Position numbers and translations under genes: made by a program
Shown: positions 3,067-25,041 of the stretch, piece by piece
Layout: each line of letters opens with the position of its first letter
How positions within the stretch are numbered: position 1 is the stretch's first letter
The notes under the pieces: model-generated
Databases searched by the model: none
What the model was told of the DNA's origin: nothing
The model's input: the letters and a program-made list of their open reading frames with translations, nothing else
From: a bacterium
GTDB lineage: Bacteria; SM23-31; JAUVVT01
NCBI GenBank assembly: GCA_030616165.1
Contig: JAUWXV010000025.1
Coordinates: 1 to 26,742, forward strand
DNA: 26,742 nt
Direction: 5' to 3'

Positions 3067-3101
3067 ATTGTAGGGACAGAACAGTGTTCTGTCCCTACAA
3101 T
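3067..3101. repeat. Family-1 palindrome, perfect 17-bp arms
   Basis: The arm attgtagggacagaaca is followed by one central g and its exact reverse complement. It is the best-preserved member of the 'gtagggacagaaca' class. It is in frame with the following RAYT remnant, where it reads as IVGTEQCSVPT. Confidence 0.9.
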
Positions 3102-3333
3102 TAATACAAATGCTCATTATGGATTAGTATCAAAAATAATTAAATCATTCAAAGAAATCGTTATAAAAACCATTAGGCAGCAATGTGGGAATTTTGATTT
3201 CCAATGGCAGAGATCATTCTATGACCATGTAATCAGAAATGAAAAATCATTAAGGAATATCAGGAAATATATTATAAATAATCCATTGAAATGGGAATTA
3301 GATGAATATAATCCCGTCAATTTTTTTACATAG
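3067..3333 (+). pseudogene. Remnant of REP-associated tyrosine transposase (C-terminal half)
   Basis: The frame ending at the TAG of 3331-3333 encodes the C-terminal half of a RAYT (Y1/HUH transposase family): 'WQRSFYDHVIRNEKSLRNI' and then 'KYIINNPLKWELDEYN', where the Tyr of KYI matches the catalytic Tyr position. The same block in the intact RAYT at 9014 reads WQRGFYDHVIRNEKDFLEKV. The N-terminal part with the His-X-His motif is absent and no start codon can be assigned. The frame runs open through the palindrome at 3067-3101, so that element is in frame here as well. A decayed palindrome lies just downstream at 3351. RAYTs mobilise short palindromes by single-strand DNA cleavage, so a remnant between two palindromes fits the family. 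Confidence 0.75.
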
Positions 3334-3350
3334 TTAATAAGCTATTTATT

Positions 3351-3389
3351 GTAGGGATAGAACACAGTGTGCAGGCAGTGTTCTGTCCT
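3351..3389. repeat. Decayed family-1 palindrome
   Basis: The left arm gtagggatagaacac and right arm gtgttctgtcc pair with one mismatch around a loop of about 12 bases. It is the same class as 3067-3101 but with a longer centre and a lost right end. It lies 17 bases after the RAYT remnant stop. Confidence 0.7.
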
Positions 3390-3542
3390 TTTTTTAGAAT
3401 CAACATATATAAATATAAAAAAGATTATTTCTAAAGATATATGAAAGTTGTGGAAGTTTACCAATGATTACTTAATTATCACAAAAAATTCAGAAAGACC
3501 AATTAAAATTTAATTTTAATTATTAAGAATAATTCATGTAAA

Positions 3543-6015: not shown

Positions 6016-6144
6016 TTATTCAGAAATCTTTAGTTTCAGCACAGAAGACAGCAGAAAGTTTTAATCATCAGTATTTGAAAAAGTGAAAGAGAAGAAAATC
6101 AAAGAGGTTGAAACTGAAACTGTTTTATGAATGTAATTTATTTT

Positions 6145-6228
6145 GCAACTTTTTTGAAAAAAAGTTGCACAAAAAACTTTAAACTTATTTTTCATTCCCC
6201 CGATTAATCGGGGGAATGAAAAATAGTG
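6145..6228. repeat. Composite repeat: H1 hairpin, linker, H2 palindrome
   Basis: H1 (6145-6168) is gcaacttttttg paired with aaaaaagttgc. The linker acaaaaaactttaaactta follows. H2 is a perfect 40-base palindrome at 6186-6225, with arms containing ttcattcccccgatt. The same H1-linker-H2 order with different arm sequences occurs at 10436-10515. The rest of the gap (6016-6398) has no gene. Confidence 0.85.
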
Positions 6229-8995: not shown

Positions 8996-9013
8996 GGAAA
9001 TGTCAAAAATTCT

Positions 9014-9511
9014 ATGAAAAAAAATATAAATTCGCGTAGGGGTGAACTTATTCACCCTGATGATTATTCTTTCTGTCGCAAGAATTCATTGCGTTTAAAA
9101 GACTATGATTATAACCTGCCTGGTCCTTATTTTGTTACAATCTGCACAAATAAAAGGATAAATTTATTTAAATGTTCTGCTGTTCGTGATTATGTAACAG
9201 ATATAATTAAAATCGTAGGGGCGGATTTATCCGCCCGAATTCATTGTGTTGTTATTGCTGTAGACCATATTCATGGATTATTCAGTTTACCAGAAGACAA
9301 AAAGGTTTCTTTATCTAAATTTGCAGTAATAATAAAAGTTCGCATAACACAATTTTTGCGAGAAGGGCGGGTAAACCCGCCCCTACGAATATGGCAGCGA
9401 GGATTTTATGACCATGTGATAAGGAATGAAAAAGATTTTTTAGAGAAAGTACAGTATATAGAAAATCATCCAATAAAAGAAGAAAGCAATACTTATACTG
9501 AGTGGCATTGA
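9014..9511 (+). CDS. REP-associated tyrosine transposase (RAYT, Y1/HUH family)
   Basis: Single-strand DNA nuclease of the IS200-like/RAYT family, which acts on short palindromes rather than on full insertion sequences. It has 165 residues from the ATG at 9014; a TTG at 8984 is an alternative, and no good Shine-Dalgarno is seen. Motifs: NSLRLKDYDYNLPGPYFVTI near the N-terminus, the metal-binding His-Ile-His in AVDHIHG (9266-9274), IWQRGFYDHVIRNEK, and the catalytic Tyr in VQYIENHP. The reading frame is complete, so the enzyme may be active. Oddly, three family-1 palindromes lie inside the coding region, encoding RRGELIHPD, VGADLSARI and EGRVNPPL. It sits between moxR and the DUF58 gene on the operon's strand, so it is probably co-transcribed. 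Confidence 0.88.
   Translation: MKKNINSRRGELIHPDDYSFCRKNSLRLKDYDYNLPGPYFVTICTNKRINLFKCSAVRDYVTDIIKIVGADLSARIHCVVIAVDHIHGLFSLPEDKKVSLSKFAVIIKVRITQFLREGRVNPPLRIWQRGFYDHVIRNEKDFLEKVQYIENHPIKEESNTYTEWH
9036..9058. repeat. Family-1 palindrome inside RAYT (N-terminal codons)
   Basis: gtagg followed by the palindrome gggtgaa-ctta-ttcaccc (9040-9057). It is translated as RRGELIHP near the protein N-terminus. If the true start were further downstream it would be untranslated, so the in-frame claim is weakest for this copy. Confidence 0.75.
9215..9237. repeat. Family-1 palindrome inside RAYT (before HIH motif)
   Basis: gtag followed by gggcgga-ttta-tccgccc (9219-9236). It encodes VGADLSAR about ten codons before the catalytic His-X-His. 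A near-identical palindrome with the same flanks occurs in the remnant at 24930. Confidence 0.9.
9365..9386. repeat. Family-1 palindrome inside RAYT (after HIH motif)
   Basis: gggcggg-taaa-cccgccc (9365-9382) followed by ctac. It encodes REGRVNPPL just before IWQRGFYDHV. Its outer end (cctac) is on the right, so it is oriented opposite to the copies at 9036 and 9215. Confidence 0.9.
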
Positions 9512-9556
9512 CAATGATTTTTATGGTGCCTTTATAATTTATAAGAGGATTAAAAT

Positions 9557-10435
9557 ATGATACCCAAGGAGATATTAAAAAAGGTAGGGCAGATAGAGAT
9601 TCAGACGAGGGGGCTGGTGAATGATGTGTTCAGCGGTGAGTATCATTCTGTATTTAAGGGGAGGGGTATGGAATTTTCTGAAGTGAGAGAATATCAATAT
9701 GGAGATGACATAAGGACAATCGACTGGAATGTCTCGGCAAGGATAGGTCATCCGTATGTGAAAGTATTTGAGGAAGAAAGAGAACTTACGGTTATGCTGT
9801 TGATTGATGTTAGTTCTTCGGGTGAGTTTGGGACAGTGGAGCGGATGAAGGGAGAGATTGCAGTGGAAATTTGTGCACTCCTGGCATTTTCGGCAATTAA
9901 AAACAACGATAAGGTGGGGCTGATAATTTTTACCGATAAAATTGAAAAATATGTACCACCAAAAAAGGGAAAACAGCATGTTTTGAGGGTGTTGCGGGAA
10001 CTGCTTTACTTCGAGCCGGAAGACAAAAAAACGAATATCTCCGTTGCTCTTGAATATTTGAGTAATGTGGTCAGAAAAAGGAGTATTGTATTTTTAATAT
10101 CTGATTTTATTTCTGAAGATTTCAGCAGGGCTTTGAAAATTGTGAATAAAAAACACGATGTAGTTGCTGTAAATATAACCGATCCACGTGAGAAGGAACT
10201 GCCCGATGTTGGCTTTATCGAATTGGAAGATGCAGAAAATGGTGAGATAATAACCATTGATTCTACTGATTCAGAATTGCGAAATTTATATTATACATAC
10301 AATCGTAAGCAAAAGGAGGATAGAGATAGACTATTTAAATCTATGAATGTTGATTTCATCGATATTTCGACCGACAAATCTTATATTGAACCTTTGATAA
10401 AATTTTTCAGAATGAGGGCGAAAAGATTCAGGTAA
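9557..10435 (+). CDS. DUF58-domain protein, VWA-like MoxR partner
   Basis: Cytoplasmic partner usually encoded directly after moxR. It has 292 residues. The DUF58 signature REYQYGDDIRTIDWNVSAR is at 44-62, after the typical GEYHSVFKGRGMEFSEV. The following region has a von Willebrand A-like fold with a MIDAS-type LLIDVSSSGEFG (Asp84, Ser86, Ser88), suggesting metal-dependent binding. No signal peptide or membrane span is visible. An agagga 7 bases before the ATG supports the start. It is separated from moxR by the RAYT gene. Its stop codon is followed with no spacing by an H1 hairpin. Confidence 0.93.
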   Translation: MIPKEILKKVGQIEIQTRGLVNDVFSGEYHSVFKGRGMEFSEVREYQYGDDIRTIDWNVSARIGHPYVKVFEEERELTVMLLIDVSSSGEFGTVERMKGEIAVEICALLAFSAIKNNDKVGLIIFTDKIEKYVPPKKGKQHVLRVLRELLYFEPEDKKTNISVALEYLSNVVRKRSIVFLISDFISEDFSRALKIVNKKHDVVAVNITDPREKELPDVGFIELEDAENGEIITIDSTDSELRNLYYTYNRKQKEDRDRLFKSMNVDFIDISTDKSYIEPLIKFFRMRAKRFR

Positions 10436-10515
10436 GTTACTTTCTTTGAAAAGAAAGTAACCAAAGAAACTTTATACTTATTCCTCACTCCGAGTACTCG
10501 GAGTGAGGAATATAG
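10436..10515. repeat. Composite repeat: H1 hairpin, linker, H2 palindrome
   Basis: H1 at 10436-10461 (gttactttcttt paired with aaagaaagtaac) begins on the base after the DUF58 stop codon. The linker caaagaaactttatacttat follows, then H2, a perfect palindrome at 10479-10512 with arms containing ttcctcactccgagt. The order and linker match the copy at 6145, but the arms differ completely. The bases to about 10560 hold more broken hairpin sequence (ccgccataggcggg). Confidence 0.85.
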
Positions 10516-10798: not shown

Positions 10799-11761
10799 AT
10801 GAATGATTATTTAAGTAAAATAATGTTAGTAATTTTATTGTTATTTATTATAAATCCCGTTATTGCTCAGCATGGTCAGATTTCAATATCATCGAGCGTG
10901 GACAGGGATGTAATAACAATAGGTGATTTAATAAATTATAATATATCGGTGGCACATGACAAAGGAATAAAAGTTGAGTATCCCGGATTGGGTGTTAATC
11001 TCGGAGCGTTTGAGATAAGAGATTATAAAATTTTTGAGCCGGAAGAGGTTGATAAAAGAATAATAAATAAAGTAGGGTATATAATAACAACATTTGATAC
11101 TGGGAATTATGTTATACCACCCATAACTGTGAGTTATTTTTCGTCTGATTCAATTGAAAAGGAATTGAAAACAGATATTATAAAAATCCGTGTGAACAGT
11201 GTAAAACCAAGTGAGGCAAAGGATATTAAAGATATTAAACCGCCAATGGAGATTAAAGTAGATTATAGAAGATACATATATTATGGACTTGCTGGATTGG
11301 GGGCTGCTTTATTGGCTTTTATTCTTATTTCTTACTTTAAAAAAAGAAAAAGAGGAGAAAATATTATTCCGAAAAGAAGAAAGCCTATTAAACCTGCACA
11401 TATTGAGGCGATTGAAGAGTTGGAAAAAATTATAAATTCTAATCTCCTTTCGGATGGTTGGGTTAAAGAATTTTATATTATTATTTCCGTAATTATCAGG
11501 CGATATATTGAAAATAGATACTTTATATATGCCCTTGAGATGACAACAAATCAGGTCTATGATTCTTTGTACAATATTGATGTAGATAAAGAAAATATTG
11601 AGTTAATTTATGAATTCCTGAGTTCGTGTGACCTTGTGAAATTTGCGAAATATATACCGGAAGAGGATGAGAATAAGAAAGTTATTGAACAGGCATTTGA
11701 TATAATTAATAAAACAAAAATCGAATTTTCTTTTCAACCGGTTGAAGCAAAGGCAGAGTAA
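10799..11761 (+). CDS. Second short BatD-like membrane protein
   Basis: 320 residues between the DUF58 gene and batA. The N-terminal signal peptide (KIMLVILLLFIINPVIAQ) is followed by a beta-rich domain at about 26-135 (SISSSVDRDVITIGDLINYN, then FDTGNYVIPPITVSYF), like the Ig-like repeats of BatD. A membrane span lies at about 160-181 and ends in KKRKR. The cytoplasmic helical domain (about 195-310) includes WVKEFYIIISVIIRRYIENR and LSSCDLVKFAKYIPEEDE, as in BatD tails and DUF4381-type proteins. The region KFAKY..EE matches RFAPTEAN of BatD at 15040, so the two C-terminal domains are probably homologous. No Shine-Dalgarno is visible. Confidence 0.8.
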   Translation: MNDYLSKIMLVILLLFIINPVIAQHGQISISSSVDRDVITIGDLINYNISVAHDKGIKVEYPGLGVNLGAFEIRDYKIFEPEEVDKRIINKVGYIITTFDTGNYVIPPITVSYFSSDSIEKELKTDIIKIRVNSVKPSEAKDIKDIKPPMEIKVDYRRYIYYGLAGLGAALLAFILISYFKKRKRGENIIPKRRKPIKPAHIEAIEELEKIINSNLLSDGWVKEFYIIISVIIRRYIENRYFIYALEMTTNQVYDSLYNIDVDKENIELIYEFLSSCDLVKFAKYIPEEDENKKVIEQAFDIINKTKIEFSFQPVEAKAE

Positions 11762-11854
11762 AAATATGTTAAGCTTTCAGCGGTAGGACAGACATTACTG
11801 TCTGTCACCTTAAATATTAAGCAAAGGCAGAGTAAAAATATGTTAAGCTTTCAG
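11745..11854. repeat. 36-bp direct repeats flanking a palindrome at the batA start
   Basis: The 36 bases at 11745-11780 recur exactly at 11819-11854. Each copy covers the last codons and stop of the BatD-like gene plus the batA start (aggcagagtaaaaatatg and the MLSFQ codons). The 38 bases between them hold a family-1 palindrome. The upstream copy now encodes only a seven-codon decoy, MLSFQR-stop, at 11766-11786. The true batA ATG is the downstream copy at 11840. Confidence 0.95.
11783..11806. repeat. Family-1 palindrome (gtaggacagac class)
   Basis: gtag followed by gacagac-attact-gtctgtc. It is the same class as 7912 and 21741 and lies between the two 36-bp direct repeats. Confidence 0.9.
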
Positions 11855-13884: not shown

Positions 13885-13940
13885 CTTCTTTCTTTGTAAA
13901 GAAGACACCTTTTTTGTAAAAAAGGTGTCCCAAAAAACTT
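13885..13940. repeat. Double H1 hairpin with linker after batB
   Basis: Hairpin cttcttt/aaagaag (13885-13904) runs straight into a perfect one, gacacctttttt-gt-aaaaaaggtgtc (13904-13929), and then the linker ccaaaaaactt. The first hairpin begins one base after the batB stop codon. The second has almost the same arms as the copy after batD at 16893. Confidence 0.85.
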
Positions 13941-13987
13941 TTGACTTAAATAATTACCTGAAAATTGCGATACAAAAATAAACATTG

Positions 13988-15039: not shown

Positions 15040-16893
15040 ATGAAAAAGTTTTTAATTCTTGTATTTCTAATACTATTAATAGTAACAAAAGTAAATGGTC
15101 AGGAAATTCAATTCACAGCCTCTGTGGATAAGACGGTTTTATCTCTTGAGCAGACATTAACATTAACCTTTCAAATAACCAGCAGTAGTGCGAATATATC
15201 TGGTACGCCCGAAATGCCTGAACTTGACGGACTGACTGTTGTTTCGGGACCAAACCTGTCCACCAGTATATCTTTTGTAAATGGACAGGTCTCTTCAAGC
15301 AGGTCATACAGTTATATTCTGATTCCGACGAATGTTGGCAAATTGACAATAGGTTCTGCCGTTCTGAATTATAATGGTAAAGTTTATAAGACGACACCCA
15401 TAGAAGTAGAGGTAGTAAAATCTGCTGCTCCCCAACAGCCGAAACCACAAACACCACGAACTGAAGTGCCTCAGGATGAATCTTCCGATTTAAGCAAGCA
15501 GGTCTTCCTGAAAGTATTTGTTGATAAAAAAAATCCATATCAGAATGAAGGAGTGACTGTATCTTACAAACTCTATACCCGTGTTCAGGTTAGAAGTTAC
15601 GGAATTTCAAAACCGCCCACCGCTACCGGGGCATGGATTGAGGAATATGCTATGCCGCAACAGCCAGTTTTATCGACCGAAGTGATTGATGGAATAAGTT
15701 ATCAGAGTGCCGTTATAAAAAAACTTGAACTTTTTCCTGCAAAATCTGGGGAACTAACACTCGAGCCCCTTGTTATACAGGCTGATGTTATAGTCAGAAG
15801 TAGAACACCGAGGAGTTTTTTTGATTTTGACTTTGATAGTTTCTTCGATGATGATTTTTTTGGAAGAACAGAAAGAAAAAATCTTGTTGCTCCTTCGGTT
15901 AAATTGAATGTTTTACCACTTCCGGAAGAGGGGAAACCTGCTATATTTAAAAATGTTGTTGGAAAATTTTCTCTCAACAGTGAGACTGATAGAACTGATG
16001 TTTTGACAAATGAGGCGGTTTCGCTTATCATCAAAATATCGGGTACAGGTAATATCAAACTCATTGAATCGCCTGGAATAAAGATTTCTGGTGATTTTGA
16101 AATGTATGAACCAAAAGTTGAAGAGAAGATCAATCGAAGTGGAGAGAATATTTCCGGTGAAAAGGTTTTTGAATATGTACTTGTGCCGAGACTTCCCGGG
16201 GTACAGAAAATAGAACCAATTATATTTTCCTATTTTAATCCTGAGACCAAAAGATATACCATTTTAACGACCGAAGAAATTTTTGTGAATGTAGCCCCTG
16301 GAAAAGAGAGATTAAGTGCATATCCGGGAAATCTCTCCCGGGACGAAGTTAAACTTATAGGAAGCGATATAAGGTTTATAAAATTAAAGCCGATTCAGTG
16401 GAATAAAGCAGGAGACAGATTTTACAAAAATTATATCTTTTTAACGTTGATTATTTTTCCTCTTATATTAATGGGAGTTACGATTATTTATAATAGTCAT
16501 CTTGAAAAGATAAATACAGACATTGGTTATAGAAGGGACAGGATGGCAGTAAAAACGGCAGAGAAGAGATTGAAGGAATCCGCTGAATATATGAAAGAAG
16601 AATCAAGAGAGAAGTTTTATTTGACATTGTCATCGGCGCTTCGTGGTTACATTGCAGATAAACTCAATATATCAGAGGTTGGGTTTCTGACAGATGAAGT
16701 TAAAGAGATGCTCGAAAATAAAAAGGTTGATGGGGAGATTTCTAATAAATTTCTTGAATTGATAAATACATGTGATTATCTGCGATTTGCACCGACTGAG
16801 GCAAATCTGCAAGATATGAAAAAGATTTATCAGGAATCCAGGGAAACAATTCTTTTGTTTGAAAAACACTTTAATTCTCTGAAAATTAAATAG
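15040..16893 (+). CDS. batD: BatD, large extracytoplasmic Bat protein
   Basis: 617 residues, the usual BatD length. A signal peptide (MKKFLILVFLILLIVTKVNG) is followed by Ig-like BatD repeats: EMPELDGLTVVSGPNLSTS (about 62-80), SRSYSYILIPTNVGKLTIG (about 88-106), and the family's Phe/Asp-rich FFDFDFDSFFDDDFFG near 265. A single membrane span (about 466-486) precedes a cytoplasmic helical domain including FYLTLSSALRGYIADKLN and LINTCDYLRFAPTEAN. It probably forms the periplasmic arm of the Bat complex. Its stop TAG shares its last base with the following H1 hairpin. The two shorter BatD-like genes upstream share the same domain order. Confidence 0.94.
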   Translation: MKKFLILVFLILLIVTKVNGQEIQFTASVDKTVLSLEQTLTLTFQITSSSANISGTPEMPELDGLTVVSGPNLSTSISFVNGQVSSSRSYSYILIPTNVGKLTIGSAVLNYNGKVYKTTPIEVEVVKSAAPQQPKPQTPRTEVPQDESSDLSKQVFLKVFVDKKNPYQNEGVTVSYKLYTRVQVRSYGISKPPTATGAWIEEYAMPQQPVLSTEVIDGISYQSAVIKKLELFPAKSGELTLEPLVIQADVIVRSRTPRSFFDFDFDSFFDDDFFGRTERKNLVAPSVKLNVLPLPEEGKPAIFKNVVGKFSLNSETDRTDVLTNEAVSLIIKISGTGNIKLIESPGIKISGDFEMYEPKVEEKINRSGENISGEKVFEYVLVPRLPGVQKIEPIIFSYFNPETKRYTILTTEEIFVNVAPGKERLSAYPGNLSRDEVKLIGSDIRFIKLKPIQWNKAGDRFYKNYIFLTLIIFPLILMGVTIIYNSHLEKINTDIGYRRDRMAVKTAEKRLKESAEYMKEESREKFYLTLSSALRGYIADKLNISEVGFLTDEVKEMLENKKVDGEISNKFLELINTCDYLRFAPTEANLQDMKKIYQESRETILLFEKHFNSLKIK

Positions 16894-16930
16894 ACACCTT
16901 TTTTGAAAAAAAGGTGTCCCAAAAAACTTT
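16893..16930. repeat. H1 hairpin with linker between batD and batE
   Basis: gacacctttttt-g-aaaaaaaggtgtc (16893-16918), then ccaaaaaacttt. The first base is the G of the batD stop codon. It fills almost the whole 49-base gap to batE, and no H2 follows. Confidence 0.88.
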
Positions 16931-16942
16931 ATACCTAATTTT

Positions 16943-24638: not shown

Positions 24639-24929
24639 AAGGCAAATCAGGAATTGATTCGAACGAAGTAGGAACAATCTGTTATGTTGGTATCAACAGT
24701 TCTTTCATGCTACCTGGACATGTTTCTGCGACGTATTGCAAAATTAGAAGCCCCTTACTAATTAGGCTTTACTGAAAAAGTTTCAAAGGTAATATAAGTA
24801 CTTGATATTATAATAATTATTTATTATATTGTAGCAATTTATAATGTTAAAAATGAACATAAATTTCAAACTAATCTGAAAAAAGCAAGCAATTTAATAT
24901 AAAAATTACTCCAATTTTTAGTTGACCCT
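24639..24929. other. Intergenic, nothing recognised
   Basis: AT-rich sequence with no coding frame of note. A weak stem (agcc...ggct, 24750-24769) is the only structure seen and is not a convincing terminator. Confidence 0.5.
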
Positions 24930-25041
24930 AATTAAGATCGTAGGGGCGGATTTATCCGCCCGAATTCATTGTGCTGTTATTGCTTAAGACAGTATTCATT
25001 AATTATTCAACAAGAAGGGCGGGCAAGCCCGCCCCTACACG
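24930..25041 (+). pseudogene. Internally deleted RAYT remnant bounded by two palindromes
   Basis: This matches two separated blocks of the RAYT gene at 9014. First, 24930-25010 matches 9206-9282 (the same palindrome gggcgga-ttta-tccgccc, then gaattcattgtg, then a degraded version of the sequence around His-X-His). Second, 25011-25036 matches 9360-9386 (agaagggcgggcaagcccgc in place of agaagggcgggtaaacccgc). About 75 bases between the blocks are missing. An in-frame TAA and other changes remove coding ability. In the right-hand palindrome both arms changed (gggcggg-taaa-cccgccc to gggcggg-caag-cccgccc), mostly in the centre. It looks like a MITE-like derivative of the transposase gene. Confidence 0.8.

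What the first reader, a model, noticed from the sequence alone, without database searches (positions are those of the whole stretch)
9014..9511. Transposase gene carries three of its own likely substrate palindromes in frame
Palindromes at 9036, 9215 and 9365 share the gtagggg/cccctac ends of intergenic copies, yet they are translated within an intact RAYT frame that still has His-X-His and the catalytic Tyr. The gene may encode both enzyme and substrate, so excision or hairpin formation could control its own expression. In-frame palindromes are known from Rickettsia (RPE elements), but as far as I know they are not typical inside RAYTs.
Basis: partly seen in the sequence, partly recalled or inferred. 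Interest (0 to 1): 0.72.

Follow-up and report, generated by a model that had tools for sequence, protein, structure and literature searches.

The report
Transposase gene carrying its own target hairpins
A small bacterial transposase gene contains, within its protein-coding sequence, copies of the same DNA hairpins that are scattered through its genome as the transposase's likely targets; comparison with about 100 related genes suggests the hairpins are kept there in place of the copies that usually flank such genes.

Summary
The RAYT-like ORF (9014-9511) carries three in-frame GTAG-tagged hairpins: REP1 9036-9057(+), REP2 9215-9236(+), REP3 9365-9386(-). Codon shuffles gave 0.003 per gene; the genome holds 117 hairpins of this class against 2 for the reversed pattern.

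In-frame REPs in RAYT genes are already published (Quentin et al. 2018, subclass 2.4), so "not typical" is wrong.

What looks new is the arrangement. REP2 and REP3 are an inverted pair enclosing the HuH codons. Of 98 related genes, 71 have in-frame REPs and 38 have one on each side of HuH, 37 in this orientation. The two REPs of a gene match (88% identity; 41% between genes), stems covary in coding DNA, and they match the genome's dispersed REPs where these exist. Paired genes mostly lack flanking REPs (30/37 have none within 400 bp; 3/26 of genes without in-frame REPs; p=3e-8).

In the window, REP2 is not an insertion: relatives have the same length there with other residues. The repeats are not simply gene relics, although one TIR-bounded MITE family here carries RAYT HuH-coding DNA.

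Best reading: an internalised REPtron, enzyme and substrate in one ORF. Cleavage, excision and self-regulation are untested.

The parts
9014..9511 (+). RAYT / TnpA_REP-like Y1 HuH transposase ORF, 165 aa from ATG 9014, stop included
   Evidence: Pfam Y1_Tnp 31.4 bits; NCBIfam NF047646 REP_Tyr_transpos 79.2 bits, just under its cut-off of 80; best solved relative 4ER8 by sequence and fold; HIH 85-87, WQRGFY 127-132, Y148
9036..9057 (+). REP1, GTAG-tagged hairpin at the 5' end of the ORF (codons 8-15); the same left-end sequence recurs in short dispersed elements
9215..9236 (+). REP2, GTAG-tagged hairpin (codons 68-75) at the end of a helix and the turn before a strand; length-neutral against relatives
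9365..9386 (-). REP3, GTAG-tagged hairpin in inverse orientation (codons 118-125), in the loop before WQRGFY; same type as at least 14 sites in the fetched part of the genome
9215..9386 (+). Internal REPIN-like segment: REP2, HuH codons, inverted REP3. The two REPs are 92% complementary and pair with each other in the predicted fold
   Evidence: I12; z -5.8 DNA, -7.4 RNA
9008..9545 (+). Duplicated unit: homology with the second copy (contig C283) starts and ends near here, flanks unrelated; ends approximate
   Evidence: 92% identical copy; NG86 dN 0.078, dS 0.137
24758..25038 (+). Partial member of a roughly 350-bp TIR-bounded MITE family carrying RAYT-derived DNA: REP2-type hairpin (24940-24961), a decayed copy of the HuH codons, REP3-type hairpin (25017-25038)

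Best explanation
This is an internalised REPtron. A RAYT (REP-associated tyrosine transposase, IS200/IS605-type HuH enzyme) normally lies between two inverted REPs, which are its recognition hairpins. Here, and in many related genes, the inverted REP pair sits inside the ORF, on either side of the HuH codons, and flanking REPs are absent. The hairpins are tolerated because they encode peripheral loops. They appear to be maintained at the nucleic-acid level as cognate REPs that stay linked to their enzyme and change together with it. Shown here by sequence: position, frame, orientation, covariation, within-gene matching, match to dispersed REPs, lack of flanking REPs. Inferred: that the protein binds and cleaves its own in-gene REPs, and that RAYT-mediated exchange or selection keeps the two copies alike.
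For: In-frame REPs far exceed chance: 109 of 196 A/B regions in 98 genes against 2.35 expected; 38 genes with both against 0.00; other tags GATG 16, GTGA 5, AGTG 3, CTAG 1 against GTAG 109. Of GTAGGG heads in these regions, chosen without regard to pairing, 114 of 121 are followed by a hairpin, against 2.8% in shuffles. 37 of 38 pairs are A(+)/B(-) around HuH. Compensatory changes in coding DNA: pair 8-23 is AT 11, CG 5, GC 2, TA 1 and pair 9-22 CG 10, GC 6, TA 2, AT 1; covariation score 0.443 against 0.124 shuffled. Within-gene A/B identity 0.88 against 0.41 between genes; A is closer to its own B than to the nearest relative's A in 21 genes, the reverse in 7 (p 0.013). In genome G593 two intact RAYT paralogues carry different REP subtypes, each with its own dispersed set, and a third, degenerate copy carries a third subtype. 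Flanking REPs absent in 30 of 37 paired genes, present beside 23 of 26 genes without in-gene REPs (p 3e-8; same trend inside the clade). Window: no REP within 1 kb on either side.
Against: No biochemistry. Most paired genes come from one clostridial clade; the window gene is a distant relative with REPs in different loops, so its arrangement is analogous, not shown to be homologous. One of the two window-genome copies (C283) has a decayed REP2 (GTAGGGTCGG). Several genomes (G245, G426, G596) have few or no dispersed copies. Dispersed dimers in G593 are tail-to-tail while in-gene pairs are head-to-head.
Confidence: 0.62

Rival explanations
1. Neutral insertion: REPs landed in the RAYT gene by chance and persist because they encode flexible loops (the view of Quentin et al. 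2018 for subclass 2.4). No function in the gene.
For: REPs also occur in other genes (0.14 per kb in other ORFs; Di Nocera et al. 2013, PMC3733652). REP-encoded residues lie in a tail, a turn and a loop of the model. C283 REP2 has decayed.
Against: RAYT cores carry about 5 times the REP density of other ORFs (0.68 against 0.14 per kb). Stems covary, the two copies in one gene match each other, and paired genes lack flanking REPs. REP2 in the window is not a length insertion.
Confidence: 0.2
2. Self-regulation: REP2 and REP3 pair in the mRNA, or REPs act as operators bound by the RAYT, limiting its own expression.
For: The REP2-REP3 segment folds at -70 kcal/mol as RNA, z -7.4 against shuffles, with REP2 paired to REP3; the DNA fold of L364 is likewise strong.
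Against: Covariation and inversion follow equally from a DNA substrate. GTAG at the foot, needed for RAYT cleavage in E. coli (PMC8266576), is not explained by RNA folding alone. No expression data.
Confidence: 0.1
3. The dispersed repeats are fragments of the gene, so the palindromes are simply gene sequence that spread.
For: The MITE family (C140, C42, C121, window 24758-25038) contains decayed HuH-coding DNA between REP2- and REP3-type hairpins. Short elements join the gene's 5' end with REP1 to REP3.
Against: That MITE has TIRs (TAGGGTCTACTGAAAAA) and was probably spread by a DDE-type transposase. Most dispersed REPs have no gene-derived spacer. In G200 and G196 homology to the gene is limited to about 24-43 bp around the REP. 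Relatives lacking the hairpins have different residues at these sites.
Confidence: 0.06
4. Chance or low-complexity palindromes.
For: None beyond the short arm length.
Against: 3 observed against 0.0032 expected; 117 dispersed copies against 2.
Confidence: 0.005

Closest known systems
TnpA_REP subclass 2.4 (RAYT group 4) with in-frame REP insertions, Quentin et al. 2018, PMC6006769
   Same: REPs inside the tnpA_REP gene without breaking the frame.
   Different: Reported generally between HuH and Y, in genes that also have flanking REPs and a long HuH-Y distance (median 88). Here the HuH-Y distance is 63 (window) and 65 (clostridial clade median), one REP lies on each side of HuH, and flanking REPs are mostly missing. 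The paper's supplementary figure could not be read, so it may show some such cases.
Canonical REPtron (Nunvar et al. 2010, PMC2817692)
   Same: One RAYT gene linked to two inverted GTAG REPs that match dispersed REPs and coevolve with the enzyme.
   Different: There the REPs flank the gene; here they are inside it.
REPIN (Bertels and Rainey 2011, PMC3116915)
   Same: Inverted REP doublet with a spacer, able to fold into one long hairpin.
   Different: The spacer here is the HuH-coding part of the enzyme gene; mobility of this segment is not shown.
Rickettsia RPE and other intragenic REPs (Di Nocera et al. 2013, PMC3733652)
   Same: Palindromic repeats translated in frame.
   Different: RPEs sit in unrelated genes and are insertions; here the host gene is the presumed enzyme and REP2 is length-neutral.

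Membership tests
RAYT / TnpA_REP | Y1_Tnp fold with HuH and a catalytic Tyr in a Y-x-x-x-x-P motif | tested here: met
   HIH 85-87, YIENHP at 148, Pfam hit over cut-off, 4ER8 best match by sequence (3.9e-18) and fold
RAYT / TnpA_REP | Matches the curated RAYT model better than the IS200 model | tested here: inconclusive
   NF047646 79.2 bits against a cut-off of 80; NF033573 IS200 24.3 bits against 55
RAYT / TnpA_REP | Gene flanked by two inverted GTAG REPs | tested here: not met
   None within 1 kb; an inverted pair is inside the gene instead. Filed as a variant for this reason
RAYT / TnpA_REP | Cognate REPs dispersed in the genome | tested here: met
   117 copies of the class, at least 14 of the REP3 type in fetched loci
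RAYT / TnpA_REP | Cleaves REP ssDNA at a dinucleotide guided by GTAG | not testable with these tools
   Needs purified protein
TnpA_REP subclass 2.4 | Long variable insertion between HuH and Y (median distance 88) | tested here: not met
   63 residues in the window gene; clostridial clade median 65
REPIN | Inverted REP doublet forming a hairpin | tested here: met
   REP2-REP3, 92% complementary
REPIN | Replicates as a unit within the genome | tested here: inconclusive
   Related pieces occur in other places, but the clearest family is TIR-bounded

The most novel reading that the evidence does not exclude
A class of RAYTs has moved its REP pair from the flanks into the ORF, so that one stretch of DNA codes for the enzyme and at the same time is its substrate; the loop residues of the protein are set by the need to keep a hairpin that matches the enzyme's specificity.
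Probability: 0.4. Interest if true: 0.78.

Novelty: new variant of a known kind. Interest (0 to 1): 0.6.

Why it matters
How RAYTs and REPs stay matched is an open question. A gene that carries its own REP pair under covariation gives a direct record of enzyme-substrate coevolution, one locus to test it, and a way to predict a RAYT's REP from its own coding sequence. It also explains how enzyme and substrate could travel together by horizontal transfer when no flanking REPs are present.

Tried and rejected
(1) REPIN birth from the gene as the main explanation: rejected after the MITE family proved to end in TIRs and after G196/G200 showed no gene-derived spacers. (2) Clean insertion of REP2: rejected by alignment. 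(3) Covariation as an artefact of choosing hairpins: checked by selecting on the GTAGGG head only. A fixed-offset set of 21 equal-length genes was noisier because not all share the register or the REP; paired fraction 0.57 against 0.43 shuffled, shuffle maximum 0.55. (5) 'of' class search gave no kinship for the clostridial genomes, so a dated or species-level tree was not made.

Full report
Observation. The window holds a 165-aa RAYT-like ORF from ATG 9014. Three GTAG-tagged hairpins lie in frame at 9036-9057 (+), 9215-9236 (+) and 9365-9386 (-), with ssDNA energies of -6.9, -8.6 and -9.1 kcal/mol. Codon shuffling of the gene gave a mean of 0.0032 and a maximum of 2 such hairpins in 5000 trials. 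The genome (3.74 Mb, 343 contigs) holds 117 matches of the class GTAGGGGYGR..YCRCCC against 2 for the reversed pattern. In the fetched loci 52 of 59 distinct sites are outside ORFs of 100 aa or more, and 5 of the 7 inside are in the two copies of this RAYT.

The enzyme. Pfam Y1_Tnp scores 31.4 bits; NCBIfam REP_Tyr_transpos 79.2 bits, just under its cut-off of 80, and IS200 24.3 bits against 55. The best solved relative by sequence and by fold is 4ER8, the E. coli RAYT bound to a REP. HIH is at 85-87 and the catalytic Tyr is Y148. A model (mean pLDDT 81) puts REP1 residues in a low-confidence tail, REP2 residues at a helix end and turn, and REP3 residues in the loop before WQRGFY.

A second copy. 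Contig C283 has a 92% identical copy; homology starts near window 9008 and ends near 9545 with unrelated flanks, so the unit has been duplicated. NG86 dN is 0.078 and dS 0.137, weak constraint. In C283 REP1 and REP3 are intact and REP2 has decayed.

Insertion or not. Against relatives lacking the hairpins (L069, L070, L071 and others) REP2 is ungapped, and the residues differ; REP3 adds about 1-2 residues. L068 has its own, different REP at the REP3 site.

Gene-derived DNA elsewhere. About ten loci carry gene positions 190-271 joined to 348-383, that is REP2, HuH codons and REP3. Alignment shows that the fullest copies form a roughly 350-bp family ending in TIRs TAGGGTCTACTGAAAAA (inferred from the sequence). 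This looks like a MITE spread by a DDE-type transposase that carries RAYT-derived DNA; it does not show RAYT activity. Separately, short elements join the gene's left end and REP1 to an inverted REP3 (C306, C56).

Generality. Among 80 relatives, RAYT cores carry 0.68 REP per kb, other ORFs 0.14, non-ORF DNA 1.81. A search of 391 genomes of one class with a clostridial profile, plus fetched regions, gave 98 non-redundant genes with clear motifs: 38 have REPs on both sides of HuH, 4 only before, 29 only between HuH and WQ, 27 none. The codon-shuffle expectation is 2.35 regions against 109, and 0.00 double genes against 38. In 37 of the 38 the orientation is (+) before and (-) after HuH, as for REP2 and REP3 in the window.

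Constraint at the DNA level. The two in-gene REPs are 88% identical over positions 8-20, against 41% between genes. A is nearer to its own B than to the A of the nearest relative in 21 genes, the reverse in 7, ties in 9 (p 0.013). In 19 distinct site-A sequences all four Watson-Crick pairs occur at two stem positions with no mismatch; 95.4% of cells pair, covariation score 0.443 against 0.124 shuffled and at most 0.127 in slid controls. Choosing by the head alone, 114 of 121 GTAGGG heads are followed by a hairpin, against 2.8% in shuffles.

Match to dispersed REPs. In G196 nearly all of 44 dispersed REPs equal the in-gene REP of L081; in G200 homology to the gene is limited to the REP and repeated about 100 times. 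In G593 the dispersed dimers fall into three subtypes; intact paralogues L364 and L365 carry one each, and a degenerate one, L366, carries the third at one site. Dispersed types 1 and 2 share a spacer, so the REPs at both ends changed together. Some genomes (G245) have only the in-gene copies.

In place of flanking REPs. Of 37 paired genes with enough flank, 30 have no REP within 400 bp and none has one on both sides; of 26 genes without in-gene REPs, 23 have a flanking REP (p 3e-8). Within the clostridial clade the figures are 29 to 6 for paired and 6 to 10 for others. The window gene has none within 1 kb.

Folding. REP2 and REP3 are 92% complementary and pair with each other in the predicted folds of 9207-9394: DNA z -5.8, RNA z -7.4.

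Prior knowledge. Quentin et al. 2018 (PMC6006769) describe predominant in-frame REP insertions in subclass 2.4 genes, generally between HuH and Y, in addition to flanking REPs, and judge them likely harmless. Nunvar et al. [quoted passage not shown] Di Nocera et al. 2013 (PMC3733652) describe intragenic REPs and REPs overlapping RAYT ends. I found no description of inverted in-gene pairs around HuH that replace flanking REPs, but the library lacks most subscription papers and supplements were not readable.

Verdict. A known kind of oddity in a variant form. The most likely mechanism is an internalised REPtron: the inverted REP pair that belongs to a RAYT lies inside its ORF and is kept as a hairpin that matches the enzyme. 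That the protein acts on these hairpins is inferred.

Noticed in passing
3067-3390: Remnant of another RAYT (WQRSFYDHVIRNEKS...) between two hairpins of a different REP type, GTAGGGACAGAACA...TGTTCTGTCC.
   Followed up: partly
24758-25038 and loci L185-L187: Roughly 350-bp family with TIR TAGGGTCTACTGAAAAA, probably a DDE-type MITE that carries RAYT coding DNA as cargo.
   Followed up: partly
L366: Degenerate RAYT with REPs of two different subtypes at its two sites, a possible intermediate of a subtype switch.
   Followed up: partly
L367-L379 (genome G593): Tail-to-tail REP dimers of about 117 bp; subtypes 1 and 2 share a spacer but differ in both REPs.
   Followed up: partly
L033 (contig C268): REP3 and REP1 joined tail to tail by 9 nt, reminiscent of an IS200/IS605 circle junction.
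   Followed up: no
6142-6188, 10435-10481, 13903-13949, 16892-16938: Another dispersed inverted repeat family, CTTTTTTGAAAAAAAGG..., between genes.
   Followed up: no
11745-11854: Exact 36-bp direct repeat around a GTAGGACAGACATT hairpin at the end of an ORF.
   Followed up: no
L049: A REP inside a 606-aa Ser/Thr kinase-like ORF, a case of an intragenic REP outside RAYTs.
   Followed up: no
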